Assembly: GCA_020725335.1 (NCBI GenBank)
Contig: DYFF01000009.1
Location: forward strand, 1 to 56,327
DNA: 56,327 nt
Direction of reading: 5' to 3'
Source of the DNA: Thermodesulfovibrio sp.
GTDB lineage: Bacteria; Nitrospirota; Thermodesulfovibrionia; Thermodesulfovibrionales; Thermodesulfovibrionaceae
In this document: positions 23,677-56,050 of the stretch, piece after piece
How the letters are laid out: each line of letters starts with the position of its first letter
Numbering within the stretch: the first letter of the stretch is position 1
Notes under the pieces: generated by a model
Databases searched by the model: none
What the model was told of the DNA's origin: nothing
The model's input: the letters and a program-made list of their open reading frames with translations, nothing else
Position numbers and translations under genes: made by a program

Positions 23677-25452
23677 TTAGAATGGCTTTGCCCCTTTCAT
23701 AAACTCTATCCATATAGGCAAAGCAGCTCTTGCCCCAGCTTCCTTTGGTCCAATTGGTTTATGATTATCTCTTCCAACCCATACACCTACAAGAAGATTG
23801 TCATCAAATCCAACAAACCATGCATCTGAAAAATCATTTGTAGTGCCTGTTTTCCCATATACATCTCTTCCAAGTTCTTTTGCCTTCTGAGCAGTTCCTG
23901 AAAGAACAACCTCTCTTAAAAGCTCTCGCATTGGTTCAACAATTTCCTCTGGTAAAATGGTTTCCATCTCAGGCTTTTTTTCATCAATAACTATTCCCTT
24001 GTGATCTGTAATCTTTTCATAAAAAATTGGCTTTATTCTCTTACCTGTTGCAAATACTGAATAGGCTGTTGTCAGTTCTATGGGTTTTACATCTGATGCT
24101 CCGAGCGCAGTTGATAAATATGGATGAATTTTTGTGTTGAGCCCACATTGCTCTGCGAATTCAACAACATTTTTAATACCTACCTGAGAAGCAAGCCTTA
24201 CTGTAGCTGCATTTAAGGATAAAGCTATTGCTTTACGTAGAGACACAACGCCATAATATTCGTTATTGTAATTTCTTGGACTCCAACTTTTTCCCTTTAT
24301 TGCCCCTGGAAAGCTAACAGGGGAATCCAAAATTGTATCATCAGGACTAAATCCTTCTATTAATGCAACAGCATAAACAAAAGGTTTGAAAGCACTGCCT
24401 GGTTGACGCATTGAATATACCCTATTGTACTGAGTCTCCCAGAAATCATTTCCTCCAACAAAAGCTTTTACAAATCCTGTTTTAAGCTCTATTGCAATCA
24501 ATGCAGCTTGAACCTGAGGCTTAACTCTTTTATGAATCTCTTCAAGCCCTCTTCGTACAGCTTCTTCTGCTTTCTTTTGAAGAGAGTAATCAATGGTTGA
24601 ATAAATCCTTAAACCATCTTTATAAAGTCTCTCTCCAAACTTCACCTCAAGCTCCTGTCTTAATGTCTCAACAAAATAGGGAGCCTCAAACTTTCTCCAA
24701 TGAGGATGTTCTGGAAGAGGAATTTTTGATGAATCATTGTATTGCTCTTTTGTAATAAAGCCTTCTTCAAGCATTTTCTGAAGCACTAAGTTTCTACGCT
24801 TCAATGCAATATCTGGTTTCTTAAAAGGATTATAGGCTGAAGGTGCCTTTGGCATAGCGGCAAGAAGAGCAACTTCCGCGATGTTAAGTTCTTGATAAGA
24901 TTTACCAAAGTAAGATTCTGCTGCTGCAGCAATTCCATAAGCTCTGTTTCCGAAATAAGCTTGATTCAGATATAACCCTAAAATTTCATCTTTTGTATAC
25001 TTTTTTTCAATCTGAATTGAAAGAATAGCCTCTTTTATCTTTCTTGCTATACTTTTTTCTGGCTTGAGGAATAACATCTTTGCAAGTTGTTGAGTTATTG
25101 TGCTTCCTCCTTCTACAATACCTCCTGCTTTAATATCTTTATAAAGAGCTCTCATTATTCCGACAATATCAACTCCAGGATGTTTATAAAATCTTATATC
25201 CTCTGCAGCAATAAAAGCTTTTTTGACGATATCAGGAATTTCATAGTGAGGCACAAATTTCCTTCTTTCATAGAAAAATTCTGTTAGCACTTGTCTATCG
25301 GAAGAATATACTATAGAGGATTCAAGTGGTCTATATCCTTCAAGGGATTTAATATCTGGTAGGTCTGAAAAAAGCCAGTAAACATAAGCACCAAAAACTC
25401 CTAATAAAAATAGAAAAAGGAAAAATAAAATATATTTTATTTTAGTAATCAT
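23677..25452 (-). CDS. Bifunctional penicillin-binding protein 1A family (transglycosylase/transpeptidase)
   Basis: 591 residues. Membrane anchor at about 7-28. GT51 domain at about 50-230 with AAEDIRFYKHPGVD and GGSTITQQLAKMLFL. Transpeptidase domain at about 300-580 with the active Ser in RQPGSAFKPF, SLN in IALSLNAATVRLA, and KTGTTND. All three PBP motifs are intact. It is shorter than classical PBP1A (about 750-850), lacking a large insert or C-terminal extension. It polymerises and crosslinks peptidoglycan from the inner membrane. The start overlaps the JAMM gene by 11 bases, tying wall synthesis to this long operon. Confidence 0.94.
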   Translation of the reverse strand: MITKIKYILFFLFLFLLGVFGAYVYWLFSDLPDIKSLEGYRPLESSIVYSSDRQVLTEFFYERRKFVPHYEIPDIVKKAFIAAEDIRFYKHPGVDIVGIMRALYKDIKAGGIVEGGSTITQQLAKMLFLKPEKSIARKIKEAILSIQIEKKYTKDEILGLYLNQAYFGNRAYGIAAAAESYFGKSYQELNIAEVALLAAMPKAPSAYNPFKKPDIALKRRNLVLQKMLEEGFITKEQYNDSSKIPLPEHPHWRKFEAPYFVETLRQELEVKFGERLYKDGLRIYSTIDYSLQKKAEEAVRRGLEEIHKRVKPQVQAALIAIELKTGFVKAFVGGNDFWETQYNRVYSMRQPGSAFKPFVYAVALIEGFSPDDTILDSPVSFPGAIKGKSWSPRNYNNEYYGVVSLRKAIALSLNAATVRLASQVGIKNVVEFAEQCGLNTKIHPYLSTALGASDVKPIELTTAYSVFATGKRIKPIFYEKITDHKGIVIDEKKPEMETILPEEIVEPMRELLREVVLSGTAQKAKELGRDVYGKTGTTNDFSDAWFVGFDDNLLVGVWVGRDNHKPIGPKEAGARAALPIWIEFMKGAKPF

Positions 25453-25840
25453 CTTGTTCTATCTTTAGGTCTATCTCCTGTACTTTATTATCTTTTATGA
25501 CAAAAGCTTTAACCTCTATTTTAGGCTCTATTGCTATAATCAAATAATAAACCTCATAAGTAGCAAGCTCTCTATCCTTTTGAGACGGATAAGCATTTCC
25601 CCAGGGATGACTATGATATATAGCAATCATATCTATATTTTTCTCCCTTATCTCCTTCATTGCCCTTAATTGTTCAAGAGGATCCATAAAATAGCTTACT
25701 GAGGAAGGTTCAATATTCCTTATCTTATATATATAGCTAACCTTTTCCCTTCCAGCAAGAATACCGCAGGCTTCATAGGGTAAAGAATTTATACAGTGAT
25801 TTATCATTTCTTCATATATTTCTTTTCTAATCTTCAACAT
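25442..25840 (-). CDS. JAMM/MPN+ metalloprotease (Mec/HcyD/QbsD-like)
   Basis: 132 residues. The complete zinc JAMM motif is present: Glu23 in YEACGILAG, then H-S-H-P (76-79), Ser86 and Asp89, the exact H-x-H-x7-S-x2-D spacing. Stand-alone bacterial JAMM proteins trim residues after the Gly-Gly of ubiquitin-like sulfur carriers (QbsD, HcyD) or release a cysteine adduct (Mec). It overlaps the E1-like gene by one base (TAATG) and lies two genes from homoserine dehydrogenase, favouring a role in sulfur incorporation into an amino acid. A candidate substrate ending GG-RLF is encoded at 52200-52451. Specific substrate is inferred. Confidence 0.87.
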   Translation of the reverse strand: MLKIRKEIYEEMINHCINSLPYEACGILAGREKVSYIYKIRNIEPSSVSYFMDPLEQLRAMKEIREKNIDMIAIYHSHPWGNAYPSQKDRELATYEVYYLIIAIEPKIEVKAFVIKDNKVQEIDLKIEQDDY

Positions 25841-26571
25841 TATTTACAAATTTTACAGGAAGTATTTCTCAGAAATTTTACTTCCCTAAACTTCTCTTTT
25901 AAAGCATCATATAAAAGCATTTTTCCATGCAATAAGTCTCCCAAATTTAGCAAAATCTTGATTGTTTCTATTGCCATAATTGACCCTATAACCCCTGCTA
26001 CAGGAGCTAAAATGCCCTTCGCAATGTCATCATCCTGGGCTTCATCAAAAAGACAATTATAACAAGGACCCTTTGGAGGAATTATATCAAAAACTTGTCC
26101 CTCAAACTCGGAAATAGCTCCTATTACCAGAGGTTTTAAAAACTTAAAAGATGCCTCGTTTAGAAGAACTCTCGTCTTAAAATTATCAGGGCAAGCCACA
26201 ACAAGGTCATAGTGAGTAAAGTATTGGGAAACATTTTTTTTGCTTATTTCATCGGGATAGGGCAGAACCTTAATATCACTATTAAGTTTTCTTAAATTTA
26301 TAAATGCCGAGATTGCCTTAGGCATTCCAATATGTTCTTCGTTATGAAGAATCTGCCTATGTAGATTGCTTAACTCAACAATATCAGGATCAATTATTCC
26401 TATATATCCTATTCCTGAAGACGCAAGATAAAAAGCTACAATACTACCAAGACCACCAGCACCTACAATTAATACCTTTGATCCTAAGAGTTTATCTTGA
26501 CCCCTTTTACCAATCTCTGGAATTATTATTTGTCTGTGATATCTCAAAAATTCAGGTTTCCTGTCCTTCAA
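25840..26571 (-). CDS. E1-like adenylyltransferase (ThiF/MoeB/HesA family, HcyF-like)
   Basis: 243 residues. ATP-binding Rossmann fold: VLIVGAGGLGSIVAFYLASSGIG, acidic residue and Arg in IIDPDIVELSNLHRQ, then the DLVVACPDN strand. Two cysteine pairs, PCYNC and TSCKIC, form the structural zinc site typical of ThiF/MoeB. It activates the C-terminal glycine of a ubiquitin-like carrier by adenylation before thiocarboxylate formation. Overlaps hom by 20 bases and the JAMM gene by one. No thi or moa genes are adjacent, so ThiF or MoeB names would be misleading. Context suggests an amino-acid sulfur-transfer function resembling HcyF of Wolinella. Confidence 0.87.
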   Translation of the reverse strand: MKDRKPEFLRYHRQIIIPEIGKRGQDKLLGSKVLIVGAGGLGSIVAFYLASSGIGYIGIIDPDIVELSNLHRQILHNEEHIGMPKAISAFINLRKLNSDIKVLPYPDEISKKNVSQYFTHYDLVVACPDNFKTRVLLNEASFKFLKPLVIGAISEFEGQVFDIIPPKGPCYNCLFDEAQDDDIAKGILAPVAGVIGSIMAIETIKILLNLGDLLHGKMLLYDALKEKFREVKFLRNTSCKICK

Positions 26572-27832
26572 CTCTTATAAAGACACTTTTTGCAGCAACT
26601 ACAGGAAGTTTGTCTATTTTTTCAAGAGCTTGTAGTACATCCTTTTCTTTAGCTTTATGAGTAAGAATAACTAAGGGAACTGCTCCCGCCTTAGATCTTC
26701 CTTTTTGAATAACAGAGGCGATGCTAATGTTATGTTCTCCAAAAACACCTGAAATTTTAGATAGCACTCCTGGTCTGTCAAGGGCAGTAAATCGGAAATA
26801 ATACATACTTTCTATTTCTTCAATTGGTTTTACACTTAATTTTTGTGAGAAATCAAGAGGAAAAGGATTTGCTCCCTTCGCAATATCAACAATATCTGCT
26901 ACCACCGCGCTTCCTGTAGGCATACTTCCTGCACCTCTACCATAATAAAGAGTTGCTCCCACACTGTCTCCCTCAACATATATGGCATTAAATACTCCAT
27001 CAACTTTTGCAATGAGATAATTCTCTGGAACCATTGTTGGATGAACTCTTATTTCAATCTCTCCATTGAGAATTTTTGTTATGGCAAGAAGTTTTATTTT
27101 ATAACCAAATTCTTTTGCAAAAGCTATATCTTGAGCAGTTATTTTTGTTATTCCTTCACAGTAAACTTTTGGAAAACTAAGAGGAATGCCATAGGCTAAG
27201 GAGGCAAGTATGGTAATTTTATGAGCAGAATCAATACCTTCTATGTCAAGTGTAGGGTCTGCCTCAGCGTAACCAAGATTCTGCGCTTCTCTTAAAGCAT
27301 CCTGAAAGTCAATCCCTTCATCTGTCATCTTTGTGAGAATATAATTTGTTGTACCATTGATTATTCCATAAATAGCAAGCATTTTGTTAGCAACAAGTCC
27401 TTCTCTCATAACTTTTATTATAGGAATGCCTCCGCCAACACTTGCTTCAAAGCCGAGCTGAAGTCCCTTTTCTTTTGCAAGATAAAAAATATCATTACCC
27501 TCTTCTGCAAGCAGAGCCTTATTTGCTGTAACTACATGTTTACCGTTTTTTAAAGCTTCTATGATGAAATCCTTTGCTGGGTGAATACCACCTACAAGCT
27601 CAACAACTACATCAATCTCTGAATCTTTTATAACTTCCCATGCATCTGGTATAAGAACTCCCTCTGGAAGACTAATCTCACGTTTTCTCTCTATGTCCCT
27701 ATCAGCAACTTTCTTAAGAATAATATCTATACCTGTTCTCTTTTTTATTAATTCTCTCTGAGATAGAAGAATTTTTGCTGTGCCTGTACCAACAGTACCA
27801 AAACCTATAATCCCGACCTTCAGCTCTTTCAT
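26552..27832 (-). CDS. hom: Homoserine dehydrogenase
   Basis: 426 residues. NAD(P)-binding GFGTVGTGTAKIL at the N-terminus, TANKALLA, catalytic-domain motif GIINGTTNYILTKM, and DPTLDIEGIDSAHKI. A C-terminal ACT domain starts near YFRFTALDRPGVLSKISGVFGEHNISI, normally giving threonine feedback control. Reduces aspartate semialdehyde to homoserine for threonine and methionine. Starts 8 bases after alaC with AGGAGG, and its end overlaps the E1-like gene. Linking homoserine production to an E1/JAMM pair is the key contextual clue of this operon. Confidence 0.96.
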   Translation of the reverse strand: MKELKVGIIGFGTVGTGTAKILLSQRELIKKRTGIDIILKKVADRDIERKREISLPEGVLIPDAWEVIKDSEIDVVVELVGGIHPAKDFIIEALKNGKHVVTANKALLAEEGNDIFYLAKEKGLQLGFEASVGGGIPIIKVMREGLVANKMLAIYGIINGTTNYILTKMTDEGIDFQDALREAQNLGYAEADPTLDIEGIDSAHKITILASLAYGIPLSFPKVYCEGITKITAQDIAFAKEFGYKIKLLAITKILNGEIEIRVHPTMVPENYLIAKVDGVFNAIYVEGDSVGATLYYGRGAGSMPTGSAVVADIVDIAKGANPFPLDFSQKLSVKPIEEIESMYYFRFTALDRPGVLSKISGVFGEHNISIASVIQKGRSKAGAVPLVILTHKAKEKDVLQALEKIDKLPVVAAKSVFIRVEGQET

Positions 27833-51063: not shown

Positions 51064-52200
51064 TTAATAAAAAATTAACGACAATAAAACTCCCGCAATT
51101 ACTATATAAAAGATATTAACTTTTTTTAACAAAGCTACAAAGGAGGCGAGCACCATTAAAATTTTTATTATACTCCAGTCAATATTACCAATAAATTTTA
51201 CTGTTACAAAAAGAAGAAGCCCTGTAAAGGAGGCAAGAAGCCCTCTTTTACCTCTGATAAACATTCTTGAATTCTTTATTTTAATGCTTATTTCTGAAAC
51301 AAAAGCCATAATCAAAAAAGAGGGGGTAAAAATAGCCACTGTGCCAACTATAGCTCCCACAAAACCCTTTAGTAAATAACCTACAAAGGTAGCAGTAATG
51401 ACAATCGGGCCTGGAGTTACCTGACCAAGAGCTATTCCATCCATAAAAGTCTTTTGATCAATCCATCCAAGTCTATAGACAAATTCATGCAACATTAACG
51501 GTAAGGATGCATAAGCACCACCAAAGGCAAAAAGGTCTATCTTAATCATTGTGAAAGCCAAAGAAAAAAGCATTTTATCAATAAAAAGAAGAGAAAATAT
51601 TAGAAGAAAAAATATCATTAACAGAATAAACAATCCTGTAAAATTTAAATTTTTTGAGTCAACCTGTTCAAAACAAGCTCTATCTCTAAAAACAATCTGC
51701 GAGACAAAGAAACAAATTATGATTATTAAAAAGGGATTTAATTTTAAAAGGAAAAGGATGAAAGAAAACACTGCAATAGAAATTTCACCAATTGATCTTA
51801 TAATAGGCTTTGCAAAGCTTAATGTAGCATTTGCAACAATTGCTACAACTATTAACTGAAGCCCTTCAAATATTGACGTAGCTGTTTGAGTTGAATATGT
51901 CTTATCGTAAAAAACAGAGAGAATCAGCATAAGAATGAAAGCAGGCAATCCAAATCCTAAATAGCTTGCTATACCTCCTAAGATACCTCTTGTTTTAAAT
52001 CCCACATAAGCTGCCACCTGCATTGCTGTTGCTCCTGGGACTGCTTGAGCAAGAGCAGCTCCTTCTTGAAAAGTTTTTCCGTCAAGCCATTGTTTTTTCT
52101 CAACAGTAAGTTCTTTAATATATGCAACCATAGCAGGACCACCAAAGGCAGTAAAACCCAGCCTTAGGAAGGATAAAAAAAGTTCTCTTAATTTGACCAT
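51064..52200 (-). CDS. Chromate transporter, ChrA family (fused two-domain)
   Basis: 378 residues with two homologous halves. Half 1: FLRLGFTAFGGPAMVAYIKE and EGAALAQAVPGATAMQVAAYVG. Half 2: MIKIDLFAFGGAYASLPLM and GIALGQVTPGPIVITATFVGYLL. About ten to twelve membrane helices. ChrA-type proteins export chromate but many anaerobe homologues have unknown oxyanion substrates. Its ATG overlaps the stop of the ubiquitin-like gene by one base in the AOR locus, so a link to tungstate, molybdate or sulfate movement is conceivable but unproven. Confidence 0.88.
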   Translation of the reverse strand: MVKLRELFLSFLRLGFTAFGGPAMVAYIKELTVEKKQWLDGKTFQEGAALAQAVPGATAMQVAAYVGFKTRGILGGIASYLGFGLPAFILMLILSVFYDKTYSTQTATSIFEGLQLIVVAIVANATLSFAKPIIRSIGEISIAVFSFILFLLKLNPFLIIIICFFVSQIVFRDRACFEQVDSKNLNFTGLFILLMIFFLLIFSLLFIDKMLFSLAFTMIKIDLFAFGGAYASLPLMLHEFVYRLGWIDQKTFMDGIALGQVTPGPIVITATFVGYLLKGFVGAIVGTVAIFTPSFLIMAFVSEISIKIKNSRMFIRGKRGLLASFTGLLLFVTVKFIGNIDWSIIKILMVLASFVALLKKVNIFYIVIAGVLLSLIFY

Positions 52201-52451
52201 TAAAAAAGTCTACCCCCTGCAATTGGGGGGAAAAGACTTATTTCATCGGATTCTTTTATTTTAGTAGAGAGGTCATTAATTATGATTCCATTTAAAATAA
52301 CTATAAAAGGTTTTTTATTTAATTTTAAAAATTCAATTAACTGACTCAATGTAATAGGCTCTGAAAACTCAAAAATGATATTTCCTTCTTCGTTTTTTTG
52401 AAATTCTTTATCTGATTTTATTCCTCCAAATAATTTTACAGTGACTTTCAT
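52200..52451 (-). CDS. MoaD/ThiS-like ubiquitin-fold sulfur carrier with GG-RLF tail
   Basis: 83 residues. Beta-grasp pattern: VTVKLFGGIKSDKEF, ITLSQLIEFLKLNK, FIVILNGIIINDL and KESDEISLFPPIAGG. Normally such carriers end in Gly-Gly, where E1 adenylates the C-terminal glycine. Here three residues (R-L-F) follow the Gly-Gly before the stop, so a protease must expose the diglycine. It lies in the AOR locus, where MoaD-like proteins are common. The E1-like and JAMM genes at 25442-26571 are possible partners. No Shine-Dalgarno is free upstream; the only AGGAG is inside the hairpin at 52461-52485. Confidence 0.88.
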   Translation of the reverse strand: MKVTVKLFGGIKSDKEFQKNEEGNIIFEFSEPITLSQLIEFLKLNKKPFIVILNGIIINDLSTKIKESDEISLFPPIAGGRLF

Positions 52452-52491: not shown

Positions 52492-54222
52492 TTACCAGTT
52501 AAAAAGCTGGTCAAGTTCTTCATCTTTTACCATGAATACTGTATTATGAGGTGGAATAGGCTCTTTATAGAAAAATCGGGGGAGTCTATCATGCTGTTTT
52601 GTAAAGCCAGCCCGGATATTAAAATCTCTTTCAAATTTTAGGACCTTTTTACCATACTCAACAACATCAGTATCTTTCATATTCCAGCCATAGAAGGCAT
52701 TTATCATATCAACCAAAGCTTGATTTGTGTCTGGTTGGTCAAGCAACGCAAAGGCAATAAATAGACACATACCTGTTGAATCTATAAAAGCAGTTGCAAT
52801 CTGAAGATTACGGGAAAGGTCTACCTGGCCTTCAGGCTTAAGGGGATCAACAAATCCGCCAGTTTTTAATACATTGAGAGCAATTGAATACCCTGCTGTA
52901 TGGTCAGCTCCCATAGGGCTTGTTGCATATGTAACTCCAATGCCTTGAATTGCCCTGGGATCATAAGCTGGAAGTGCCTGTCCTTTAACAACAGGTACTC
53001 TCTCTACTCCAAAGGCTTTTCCCGTAAAAGCTGCACCATTTCCAATAATTCTTCCTAAGTAACTGCCTTTACCAATCTCATGCAGTAAGTTAATTGCTCC
53101 ATCTGCATCTCCCCATTTTAGCAGTCCTGCTTCCATAGCAACTCCTATTGTAGCACCCATCTCAATAGTGTCAACACCATAGTTATCACATAAGAAATCC
53201 ATCATGGCAATCTTATCTATATCATCAATGCCGCAGTTTCCACCAAGTGCCCAAACTGTTTCGTATTCAGGTTGTTTTGTAAGATAATTACCATCTTTGT
53301 CATGATAAATTCCTGAACAGCGAATCACACATCCACGGTGACAACCATGAGTTGGATTTCCACCTCTTTGTTTTTCAAGCTCTGCTTCCACCTCTCCGCT
53401 TATCTTTCTTGCTCCTGCAAAACGTCCTTCTTTAAAGTTATAGGTAGGATAGGCTCCTACTTCATTTATAATGTTAGTCAGTACATTCGTTCCATAAGCA
53501 GGAAGTCCCTGACCTGTGACAGGATGTTTCTGCAGTCCTGCTACAAAACGTTTATTTGCATCCTTGAATGCTTCTGCATCCTTAGGTTGTCTTGGTGTGG
53601 TTCCTGCATCATCAAGCACAATTACTTTTATTCCCTTTGAACCCATTACAGCACCAACACCACCACGGCCTGCATGTCTTGTAGGCCTAAGCTCCATATC
53701 AGTAATTGCTACTGAAGCTCCTGATAGCTTCATCTCACCTGCAGGTCCGATACTAACACAAGCAATTTTTTCTCCAAATTCCTTTTTCATTTTTTCAACT
53801 AACTCATAATTAGGAAGCATCTTAATAGTGTTATCTTTTTCAATCTTTACCCCATCTTTGCTAATGTAGATTTTATAAGTATCCTCTCCTTTTGGCTTTC
53901 CCTCAAGAACAATTGCTGCAATGCCAAGCCTTCCCATAACCTGTCCTGCCTGTCCACCTGCATTTGCTTCTTTAATACCTCCTGTAAGAGGGCTTTTACA
54001 TCCCACAGAAACTCTTCCCGACATAGCAGCAGCTGTTCCACCAAGAAGTCCGCAAGCTATAACAAGTTTGTTGTCAGCACTTAATGGGTGGCAGAGTGGG
54101 TCTACTTCTTTTGAAATAATTGCTGAAGTAATAGCTCTTCCGCCAAGTCCCTGGTAATCTCCTAAATCTTCAAACTTTGCAACTGGTGCGTCCTCATTCA
54201 TGTTAATTCTTAAAATTTTCAT
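52492..54222 (-). CDS. aor: Aldehyde:ferredoxin oxidoreductase (tungsten/molybdenum bis-pterin)
   Basis: 576 residues from ATG 54222 (AAAGGAGGTGTAGC upstream); 24 further residues in the longer frame are not typical. Oxidises aldehydes to acids with ferredoxin as acceptor. Landmarks: GLGGRAITSAII, GTAAAMSGRVSVGCKSPLTGG, RPTRHAGRGGVGAVMGSKG, and the [4Fe-4S] ligands Cys294, Cys298, Cys302 in HGCHRGCVIRC plus a Cys in STGMCLF. The cytosolic enzyme carries W-bis-pyranopterin. The maturase-like radical SAM gene is upstream and the MoaD-like gene downstream. An own promoter (TGT-TATAAT) sits at the end of the radical SAM gene. Confidence 0.95.
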   Translation of the reverse strand: MKILRINMNEDAPVAKFEDLGDYQGLGGRAITSAIISKEVDPLCHPLSADNKLVIACGLLGGTAAAMSGRVSVGCKSPLTGGIKEANAGGQAGQVMGRLGIAAIVLEGKPKGEDTYKIYISKDGVKIEKDNTIKMLPNYELVEKMKKEFGEKIACVSIGPAGEMKLSGASVAITDMELRPTRHAGRGGVGAVMGSKGIKVIVLDDAGTTPRQPKDAEAFKDANKRFVAGLQKHPVTGQGLPAYGTNVLTNIINEVGAYPTYNFKEGRFAGARKISGEVEAELEKQRGGNPTHGCHRGCVIRCSGIYHDKDGNYLTKQPEYETVWALGGNCGIDDIDKIAMMDFLCDNYGVDTIEMGATIGVAMEAGLLKWGDADGAINLLHEIGKGSYLGRIIGNGAAFTGKAFGVERVPVVKGQALPAYDPRAIQGIGVTYATSPMGADHTAGYSIALNVLKTGGFVDPLKPEGQVDLSRNLQIATAFIDSTGMCLFIAFALLDQPDTNQALVDMINAFYGWNMKDTDVVEYGKKVLKFERDFNIRAGFTKQHDRLPRFFYKEPIPPHNTVFMVKDEELDQLFNW

Positions 54223-54253
54223 GCTACACCTCCTTTTGTTACAACTTTTCTCA

Positions 54254-54262
54254 ATTATAACA
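54254..54262 (-). promoter_or_regulatory. Extended -10 promoter of aor
   Basis: On the minus strand TGT-TATAAT ends 31 bases before the aor ATG, giving a leader of about 25 bases with AAAGGAGG. It overlaps the last codons of the radical SAM gene. Confidence 0.5.
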
Positions 54263-55529
54263 TACAGTAGAATAATCCACCACACCAAAGACATGCTCCG
54301 CAGGGAATATAGTTTGTATAGCAGTCATAAAGAAAATCTTCAAGTTCCATTAGGTCACAAAGAGCAAAATTACAGTCATAGCAATAGGGGAAGTCGTATC
54401 CTAGAACTGAGTCAACAAACCCTCTATAATCAGAAGAATTGAATATATCTAAGGGATTTTTTTCTTTAACATTACCAAAAGACCATCTTTTAACAGATTT
54501 TTTCAAGCCCGCAATGTAACAAGTAAAATCATGCCAGAGGAAGTAACATGGGGATATTTCACCATCAACCCCTAAAAATAAACATTTTTCTTCAAGAAAA
54601 TCACATTTACGATTAGGAGTAGGATTTGTTCTGGGAAGTTGAACCTGTAAATTAAATTTTCTACTTAATCTTGAAACTTCTTTTAAGACCTTTTTAACTT
54701 CCTTAATTAACGAATCATCTCTGCTAATTAGATTATTCATGTGAAGAGTTATGCCTTTGGTTAAAGCTTCCTCATACATAGCTTTAAAAAGTTTAAGAGG
54801 TTCATTTTCTTCAGGAAAAAATTCAGGCAGGGCTTTCTTTTTCATCTGCTCCATCCAGTCATCTATGGTATAGCCTCTTTCAATCAATTTATTCTGCCAT
54901 TTTTTGAATATTCTTATCGCCTCTTCATTGTTTGTTTCATAGGCAACAAGATTTGTTGATTCTGGTGAATAGGGAATTAGATGGCTGAGTATTACAAAAT
55001 CTATTTTATATTTCAAAGCCTCCAAAATGGTTGGCACAATCTGATGAAGATTGTCTTTAGTGATCACAATTTCTATCCCGCTTTCAAATCCTTGAACACC
55101 CTTTGTTTTAGCACGGTATACAGTCTCGAGCGCCCTTTTACCAAATTGAGGCTCATGAAGTCCTTTTACAGGTACAAGACTATCTATGGAAATGCATACT
55201 CTATTTAATCCAGCCTCTAAAAGGCCATCCAACTTTCCATCACTAAGCAAAACTCCATTCGTCTGAAAACCTATTTTTGAACCTTCAGTCATATTCTCTT
55301 TCGCAAAAGAGATAAACTTTTCAAGTTCCGGATGCAAAAGAGGCTCTCCTATTCCATTGAGCACAAGACTATTCATATAGGGGAATAGTGGGATAAGTTG
55401 AGCAAAAACTTCAAAATCCATATCCATTTCAGGCTGTTTATAGTTGGGACTTTGTTTAGGACAAATTTCACAGTGCAAATTACATCTTGTGGTTATTTCA
55501 ACAGAAAGCTTTTCCGGAAATGAATTCAT
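54255..55529 (-). CDS. AOR-associated radical SAM maturase-like protein
   Basis: 424 residues. Radical SAM cluster CNLHCEIC (C-x3-C-x2-C) near residue 16, then LVLNGIGEPLLHPELEKFI, the GEPLLHP SAM-binding element. The C-terminal 110 residues hold many Cys (KCDFLEEKC, SPCYFLWHD, YCYDCNFALC, DCYTNYIPCGACLWCGG), consistent with SPASM-like auxiliary clusters. Position next to aor and this architecture match the tungsten-cofactor oxidoreductase radical SAM maturase family. What it modifies is not established. TATAAT lies 8 bases before ATG with no ribosome site. Confidence 0.85.
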   Translation of the reverse strand: MNSFPEKLSVEITTRCNLHCEICPKQSPNYKQPEMDMDFEVFAQLIPLFPYMNSLVLNGIGEPLLHPELEKFISFAKENMTEGSKIGFQTNGVLLSDGKLDGLLEAGLNRVCISIDSLVPVKGLHEPQFGKRALETVYRAKTKGVQGFESGIEIVITKDNLHQIVPTILEALKYKIDFVILSHLIPYSPESTNLVAYETNNEEAIRIFKKWQNKLIERGYTIDDWMEQMKKKALPEFFPEENEPLKLFKAMYEEALTKGITLHMNNLISRDDSLIKEVKKVLKEVSRLSRKFNLQVQLPRTNPTPNRKCDFLEEKCLFLGVDGEISPCYFLWHDFTCYIAGLKKSVKRWSFGNVKEKNPLDIFNSSDYRGFVDSVLGYDFPYCYDCNFALCDLMELEDFLYDCYTNYIPCGACLWCGGLFYCML

Positions 55530-55635: not shown

Positions 55636-55708
55636 GGGCGGATAGCTCAGATGGGAGAGCGCAGCCCTTACAAGGCTGAGGTCACAGGTTCGAAACCTGT
55701 TCCGCCCA
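55636..55708 (+). tRNA. tRNA-Val (anticodon TAC)
   Basis: Full cloverleaf: acceptor GGGCGGA pairs with TCCGCCC (55701-55707), anticodon stem CAGCC/GGCTG encloses CTTACAA with anticodon TAC at 55669-55671, T-loop GGTTCGAAACC. Discriminator A; CCA is not encoded. Nine bases separate it from tRNA-Asp. Confidence 0.97.
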
Positions 55709-55717
55709 TGTGGCAAT

Positions 55718-55792
55718 GGGGTGGTAGTTCAGCACGGTTAGAACGCTTGCCTGTCACGCAAGAGGCCGCGGGTTCAAGTCCCGTCCACCCCG
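55718..55792 (+). tRNA. tRNA-Asp (anticodon GTC)
   Basis: Acceptor GGGGTGG pairs with CCACCCC (55785-55791), anticodon stem CTTGC/GCAAG encloses CTGTCAC with anticodon GTC at 55753-55755, T-loop GGTTCAAGTCC. Discriminator G; no CCA encoded. A decayed integrase reads towards its 3' end, so the gene is a likely attachment site. Confidence 0.97.
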
Positions 55793-56050
55793 TTAATATT
55801 TTCAAGGGTTTCTGAATAATCTCTCCTGTGACTGTGACTAAATTGTGACTAAGGTTGGCCTCTAAAGCTTTGAGAGCCTCCCTCTTATGAGCCTGTGATA
55901 GATGAGCATATCTAAGTGTCATTGTAAGGCTTTTGTGTCTTAAAAGTTCCTGTACAGTCTTAACTCCACTACTGACATTACTAACTGGCCTGCAAAGGTA
56001 TGTCTTAGGTCACTGGAATAATAGTATATCTCTTGACGTCTTTTTAAATA
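55793..56050 (-). pseudogene. Tyrosine recombinase (phage integrase) remnant at tRNA-Asp
   Basis: On the minus strand the catalytic C-terminus is recognisable in two frames. The first gives SSDLRHTFAGQLVMS (box with Arg and His, near 55968-56018). After an indel near 55967-55975 the second gives GVKTVQELLRHKSLTMTLRYAHLSQAHKREAL, with the catalytic Tyr codon at 55908-55910. The N-terminal half is missing. No stop occurs between the second frame and the tRNA genes, so the frame runs through the antisense of both tRNAs; its true end cannot be set. It is probably the relic of an element inserted at tRNA-Asp. This stretch (55793-56122) holds no other gene that I can see. Confidence 0.8.

What the first reader, a model, noticed from the sequence alone, without database searches (positions are those of the whole stretch)
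52200..52451. Ubiquitin-like sulfur carrier ending GG-RLF, apparently needing proteolytic maturation
The frame ends FPPIAGG then R-L-F and stop. MoaD and ThiS end at Gly-Gly. Carriers with residues after the diglycine (QbsE of Pseudomonas, HcyS of Wolinella) are trimmed by a JAMM protease before E1 activation. A JAMM protein with a perfect zinc motif and an E1-like enzyme are encoded in the same window (25442-26571). The three could form a sulfur-transfer system split over two loci, or the carrier may serve tungstopterin synthesis at the AOR locus with a regulated maturation step.
Basis: partly seen in the sequence, partly recalled or inferred. Interest (0 to 1): 0.75.

Follow-up and report, generated by a model that had tools for sequence, protein, structure and literature searches.

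The report
Capped sulfur carrier beside tungsten enzyme
A small ubiquitin-like sulfur-carrier protein encoded beside a tungsten enzyme carries a few extra, freely drifting amino acids after its active glycine end; they probably have to be cut off before it works, most likely by a protease whose main job is in a separate amino-acid (probably homocysteine) pathway.

Summary
In detail: 52200-52451 (-) encodes an 83-residue MoaD-family carrier ending FPPIAGG-RLF, directly after an AOR-like gene and a W-cofactor-type radical SAM gene. Capping is real, not a one-genome quirk: 9 of 12 genus orthologues and 16 of 24 named Nitrospirota loci have residues after an invariant FPPIAGG. The cap is not conserved (11% identity against 66% in the body; 0-7 residues in the genus, up to 59 in the order). 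ThiS in the same genomes ends in its glycine run. The window's JAMM/E1 pair belongs primarily to a different carrier: in four relatives E1-JAMM lies in one run with TS1, a CysO-like carrier that is itself capped, NIL and TS2. In this genome that carrier is on another contig and ends GG-SY. The JAMM is nevertheless the genome's only clear one. Outside Nitrospirota every capped-carrier genome sampled has a JAMM, and JAMM-less genomes end exactly at GG. Best reading: a capped tungstopterin carrier trimmed by a shared JAMM. Capped carriers and one JAMM serving two are known (Streptomyces PtmS); a capped AOR-linked carrier appears new. No cleavage was tested.

The parts
52200..52451 (-). MoaD-family (ThiS PF02597) sulfur carrier, 83 aa, ending FPPIAGG-RLF
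   Evidence: AF2 model pLDDT 89.5, closest fold H. pylori MoaD 3rpf_C
52212..52232 (-). FPPIAGG, invariant in 12 of 12 genus orthologues; adenylation/thiocarboxylation end
52203..52211 (-). cap Arg-Leu-Phe after the diglycine; not conserved; pLDDT below 50 (residues 80-83)
52492..54294 (-). AOR-type (tungstopterin) oxidoreductase, AFOR_N + AFOR_C; true start probably an internal Met about 25 codons in
54255..55529 (-). radical SAM/SPASM protein, TIGR04311 putative metalloenzyme maturase
51064..52200 (-). chromate-transporter family gene; its ATG overlaps the carrier's stop (TAATG)
25442..25840 (-). JAMM metalloprotease (Prok-JAB PF14464), the only clear one in the genome; candidate trimming enzyme, primarily of the CysO-like carrier system
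25840..26571 (-). E1-like adenylyltransferase (ThiF/MoeB family), paired with the JAMM
26552..27832 (-). homoserine dehydrogenase (named by inspection of the ORF; not scanned against a library), directly upstream of E1-JAMM here and upstream of the pair in most relatives examined

Best explanation
This is the sulfur carrier of a tungsten-cofactor (AOR) locus, a MoaD-type beta-grasp protein made as a capped precursor. The residues after FPPIAGG must be removed before an E1 can adenylate the terminal glycine and sulfur can be loaded as a thiocarboxylate for the pterin dithiolene. The most likely trimming enzyme is the genome's single clear JAMM, encoded about 26 kb away. That JAMM and its E1 belong mainly to a CysO/HcyS-like carrier system (capped carrier, threonine-synthase-like PLP enzyme, NIL protein, homoserine genes) and are borrowed. 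With such a protease in the cell, the stop codon of the AOR carrier is no longer held at the second Gly and drifts, giving non-conserved caps. Shown here: family, fold, neighbours, cap variation, JAMM/E1 context, co-occurrence of caps with JAMM. Inferred: that the cap blocks activation, that it is removed, that this JAMM removes it, and that sulfur goes to tungstopterin.
For: FPPIAGG invariant while cap identity is 9/80 aligned positions against 66% in the body, so selection holds the GG but not what follows. ThiS in the same genus always ends in its Gly run (10 of 10 inspected) and the CysO-like carrier is always capped (11 of 11). Outside Nitrospirota, genomes with a capped carrier have a strong JAMM in 7/7 cases, uncapped in 14/43 (Fisher p=0.0012). 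In Chloroflexota 8/8 capped and 6/6 carriers with long extensions after GG (five with a MoaE-like part) have a JAMM; the four genomes without a strong JAMM are uncapped. Stratified test p=5e-4, not corrected for phylogeny. JAMM present in 33 of 34 order genomes. Precedent: in Streptomyces deleting the JAMM ptmS1 abolished the product while deleting one capped carrier did not, so one JAMM appears to serve two capped carriers (PMC6006322). The MoaX fusion must be cut after Gly82 to work (PMC4326299).
Against: No cleavage, adenylation or sulfur loading was tested. The JAMM-cap association rests on few independent clades; within AOR-adjacent carriers alone in the set it is 2/2 vs 9/23 (p=0.18), and Chloroflexota caps alone give p=0.15. 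JAMM is near-universal in the order, so the link cannot be tested there. One capped orthologue sits in a genome with no JAMM found (G015, 66% complete) and another in one with only a weak hit (G069, 36.5 bits, 86% complete). No JAMM is next to the AOR carriers; published gene-neighbourhood analysis found no JAB gene in thiamine and Moco/Wco operons (PMC1779556). Genus caps are shorter than random read-through predicts (P about 1e-4), so drift is not wholly free. MoaE is undetected in the eleven AOR-carrier-positive order genomes outside the genus, so the downstream partner is unclear.
Confidence: 0.55

Rival explanations
1. One reading: carrier, JAMM and E1 of this window form one dedicated sulfur-transfer system split over two loci, with regulated maturation.
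For: All three are in one window; single clear JAMM in the genome.
Against: In relatives the same E1-JAMM pair is contiguous with another capped carrier and amino-acid genes; JAMM is kept where the AOR carrier is absent; a second E1 exists in this genome; cap not conserved.
Confidence: 0.1
2. The cap is removed by another peptidase (general carboxypeptidase or ATP-dependent protease), not by the JAMM.
For: Caps vary widely in sequence and length; the JAMM is not at the AOR locus; G069 and G015 lack a good JAMM hit.
Against: The one-directional cap-JAMM association; ThiS, exposed to the same general peptidases, keeps its exact end.
Confidence: 0.2
3. The RLF of this genome is an artefact or recoding: six G instead of five, or -1 slippage on GGGGG, gives AGG-stop exactly.
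For: GCA GGG GGT AGA...: one added G or a -1 shift yields AGG-TAG; 3 of 12 genus orthologues end exactly at GG.
Against: Caps occur in 8 other genus genomes with different DNA and no shared slippery run, and in 16 of 24 Nitrospirota loci.
Confidence: 0.08
4. The carrier no longer works through a thiocarboxylate (e.g. a structural or binding protein), so nothing constrains its C-terminus.
For: Cap drift; MoaE undetected in most order genomes.
Against: FPPIAGG invariant in 12 of 12 genus and nearly all order sequences; AOR-adjacent homologues outside Nitrospirota end exactly at GG with few exceptions, several loci also encoding an E1.
Confidence: 0.07

Closest known systems
AOR-adjacent MoaD set (Iyer et al. 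2006, PMC1779556; T. kodakarensis TK1065/UblC, PMC11323500)
   Same: MoaD-type carrier next to AOR, with a radical SAM gene next door
   Different: AOR-adjacent relatives found here outside Nitrospirota end exactly at GG, except two Chloroflexota in the first scan; this one is capped
Capped carriers with a JAMM: QbsE/QbsD, HcyS/HcyD (own knowledge), PtmS2/PtmS3/PtmS1 (PMC6006322)
   Same: GG followed by 1-3 residues, JAMM and E1 in the genome; one JAMM can apparently serve two carriers at different loci
   Different: Those carriers serve siderophore, methionine or thioacid pathways; this one sits at a tungsten-enzyme locus, its cap is unconserved and no JAMM is adjacent
MoaX, the MoaD-MoaE fusion of M. 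tuberculosis (PMC4326299)
   Same: MoaD-type protein whose GG must be freed by cleavage after the second Gly
   Different: A whole enzyme, not a short drifting cap, follows the GG; protease unidentified in that paper
CysO/CysM/Mec+ and HcyS/HcyF/HcyD systems (own knowledge)
   Same: The window's E1-JAMM belong to a system of this sort: CysO-like carrier (E 5e-19 to 3dwg_C), PLP enzyme, JAMM
   Different: Uses threonine-synthase-like enzymes, a NIL protein and homoserine genes instead of CysM or MetY; its carrier is not the one of this finding

Membership tests
MoaD/ThiS sulfur-carrier superfamily | ThiS-family domain and beta-grasp fold | tested here: met
   PF02597 E 5.8e-12; AF2 model, best match MoaD 3rpf_C E 3.8e-4, prob 1.00, then mycobacterial MoaD and SAMP1
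MoaD/ThiS sulfur-carrier superfamily | conserved diglycine at the end of the domain | tested here: met
   FPPIAGG invariant in 12 genus orthologues
Uncapped MoaD/ThiS (reactive glycine is the last translated residue) | translation product ends exactly at GG | tested here: not met
   RLF follows; 9 of 12 genus orthologues capped
Canonical MoaD (MPT synthase small subunit) | above the curated moaD equivalog cut-off | tested here: not met
   TIGR01682 19.9 bits vs 66.15; TIGR01687 30.8 vs 49.5
Canonical MoaD (MPT synthase small subunit) | MoaE partner in the genome | tested here: inconclusive
   MoaE present here and in 10 of 11 genus genomes, but undetected in the eleven AOR-carrier-positive order genomes outside the genus
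AOR-linked (tungsten cofactor) MoaD set | directly adjacent to an AOR gene | tested here: met
   AOR 52492-54294 directly upstream; the same in relatives
Capped carrier / JAMM systems (QbsE, HcyS, PtmS2) | residues after GG, with JAMM and E1 in the genome | tested here: met
Capped carrier / JAMM systems (QbsE, HcyS, PtmS2) | carrier gene clustered with JAMM/E1 | tested here: not met
   no JAMM at the AOR locus; in relatives E1-JAMM is next to a different carrier
Capped carrier / JAMM systems (QbsE, HcyS, PtmS2) | JAMM removes the cap | not testable with these tools
   needs a biochemical assay

The most novel reading that the evidence does not exclude
A tungstopterin sulfur carrier has lost its fixed diglycine terminus because a JAMM protease from an amino-acid pathway trims it in trans: one processing enzyme couples two sulfur-carrier pathways and frees the stop codon of the second carrier to drift. 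This would make tungsten-cofactor synthesis dependent on a JAMM, a link not seen in published Moco/Wco neighbourhoods.
Probability: 0.5. Interest if true: 0.6.

Novelty: new variant of a known kind. Interest (0 to 1): 0.45.

Why it matters
MoaD and ThiS are textbook examples of proteins whose last residue is the reactive glycine. Here, in most members of one lineage, the gene ends at an essentially arbitrary place after that glycine. If the JAMM trims it, tungsten/molybdenum cofactor synthesis in these bacteria depends on a ubiquitin-type processing protease, a simple case of a trans-acting protease relaxing selection on another protein's terminus. It also warns against trimming or re-calling such genes to end at GG. 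The side finding, a cluster joining E1-JAMM, a capped CysO-like carrier, NIL protein and two threonine-synthase-like genes with homoserine genes, is a testable candidate for a thiocarboxylate route to homocysteine.

Tried and rejected
Assembly artefact or -1 slippage as the general cause: rejected, since relatives have caps with unrelated DNA. Cap as a conserved regulatory signal: rejected. JAMM/E1 dedicated to this carrier: rejected on synteny. Second JAMM-like hit on C20: by inspection a RadC-type protein. Testing cap against JAMM within the order: impossible, JAMM near-universal. Using MoaE to decide whether this is the cell's MoaD: inconclusive. Rfam scan for a cofactor riboswitch: only two tRNAs.

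Full report
Observation. The ORF at 52451-52200 (-) encodes 83 residues ending FPPIAGG-RLF, and its TAA overlaps the ATG of a chromate-transporter gene. PF02597 matches residues 25-80, ending at the second Gly. An AlphaFold2 model from 16 homologues has mean pLDDT 89.5; residues 80-83 fall below 50. The best solved fold is H. pylori MoaD (3rpf_C), followed by mycobacterial MoaD and SAMP1. The gene follows an AOR-type gene and a radical SAM/SPASM maturase-like gene. The finding is therefore real, with one caution: the sequence GCA GGG GGT AGA would read AGG-stop with a sixth G, so this single genome cannot prove its own cap.

All carriers of the genome. A whole-genome search (1.80 Mb, 99.9% complete) finds three ThiS/MoaD proteins: ThiS beside thiazole/thiamine genes, ending VGGG; a CysO-like carrier on another contig, ending PAIAGG-SY; and the one of the finding. 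There are two E1 enzymes and one clear JAMM (the other hit looks like RadC). The cap is thus not unique to the AOR carrier.

Cap evolution. Twelve genus orthologues end FPPIAGG followed by RLF, DEV, LGKVAIR, nothing, nothing, YR, LINNGLS, QC, LLN, F, LLN, nothing. Body identity averages 66%; cap identity is 9 of 80 aligned positions once the LLN sister pair is set aside. In the order, caps run from 0 to 59 residues. Of 24 named Nitrospirota loci with an AOR and/or radical SAM neighbour, 16 are capped; some of these are the same genomes as. In the same genus ThiS ends in its Gly run in 10 of 10 inspected, while the CysO-like carrier is capped by 1-2 residues in 11 of 11. So the three carriers of one cell show three behaviours: fixed end, obligatory cap, drifting cap. 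Genus caps are shorter than random read-through would give (P about 1e-4, assuming independence), so drift is biased to short caps.

What the JAMM and E1 belong to. In this genome E1-JAMM follow homoserine dehydrogenase. In G026 the order is aminotransferase, homoserine dehydrogenase, E1, JAMM, TS1 (threonine-synthase-like), CysO-like carrier (GGK), NIL, TS2, apgM, then a gene that looks like aspartokinase; G037, G023 and G035 have much the same run, with GGK, GGVF and a 17-residue cap (the G035 fragment ends at E1). None of these four gave a convincing hit for the AOR carrier (only weak C-terminal matches or none). The carrier is CysO-family by sequence (4n6e_B 2.7e-22, CysO 3dwg_C 5.3e-19). 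In the window's genome TS1-carrier-NIL-TS2-apgM lie on another contig.

Does the JAMM also serve the AOR carrier? Indirect evidence only. Outside Nitrospirota, 7 of 7 genomes with a capped carrier have a strong JAMM (at least 50 bits), against 14 of 43 uncapped; the 43 include one Nitrospirota genome (L076), and five of the seven capped ones are not AOR-adjacent and come from Latescibacterota/Gemmatimonadetes. In Chloroflexota, 8 of 8 capped and 6 of 6 with long extensions after GG (five carrying a MoaE-like part) have one, against 11 of 15 uncapped. The stratified test gives p=5e-4, without phylogenetic correction; AOR-adjacent carriers alone give p=0.18. The direction is consistent (no capped genome in these two sets lacks a JAMM), but two incomplete order genomes (G015, G069) are capped without a good JAMM hit. 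In Streptomyces, deleting the JAMM ptmS1 abolished thioplatensimycin while deleting the capped carrier ptmS2 did not, read by the authors as redundancy with capped PtmS3. The MoaX fusion needs cleavage after its diglycine. Iyer et al. described the AOR-linked MoaD set and found no JAB gene in thiamine and Moco/Wco neighbourhoods, so a JAMM-dependent tungstopterin carrier would be a new crossing of the two classes.

Mechanism. Most likely: precursor, trimming by the shared JAMM at GG|RLF, adenylation by one of the two E1s, sulfur loading, donation to tungstopterin precursor for AOR. Only the anatomy and comparative pattern are shown. The downstream partner is unclear: MoaE is present here and in 10 of 11 genus genomes but undetected in the eleven AOR-carrier-positive order genomes outside the genus, possibly because of divergence.

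Verdict. New variant of a known kind.

Noticed in passing
L189 1761-10662 (G026); window 25442-27832 plus L047 6807-10878 in this genome: E1-JAMM, capped CysO-like carrier, NIL protein and two threonine-synthase-like genes cluster with homoserine dehydrogenase, apgM and apparent aspartokinase: a candidate thiocarboxylate-dependent homocysteine route using a threonine-synthase paralogue.
   Followed up: partly
order-level genomes: MoaE (PF02391) was found in 10 of 11 genus genomes but only 3 of 35 other order genomes, none of the eleven that carry the AOR carrier; MPT synthase may be divergent or replaced.
   Followed up: no
L269, L270, L273, L274, L275 (Chloroflexota): AOR-type loci carry extra MoaD-like paralogues that lack the GG end (..GDRLGVFP-LYKWYF.. 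or LYV) next to a GG-ending carrier; role unknown.
   Followed up: no
L276, L283, L284, L289, L294 (Chloroflexota): MoaX-like fusions in which a MoaE-like sequence (by inspection) follows the carrier's GG directly; all these genomes have a JAMM.
   Followed up: partly
L090, L092, L094, L098 (Latescibacterota/Gemmatimonadetes): Carriers ending GG-A or GG-V, not AOR-adjacent, in JAMM-bearing genomes; L090 and L098 also encode a CysO-like carrier next to a cysteine-synthase-like gene.
   Followed up: partly
window 55668-55922 (-): 84-aa ORF (..TGLEPAASCVTGKRSNRAELPPHC..) lies antisense over tRNA-Asp (55717-55793), so it is very probably spurious.
   Followed up: yes
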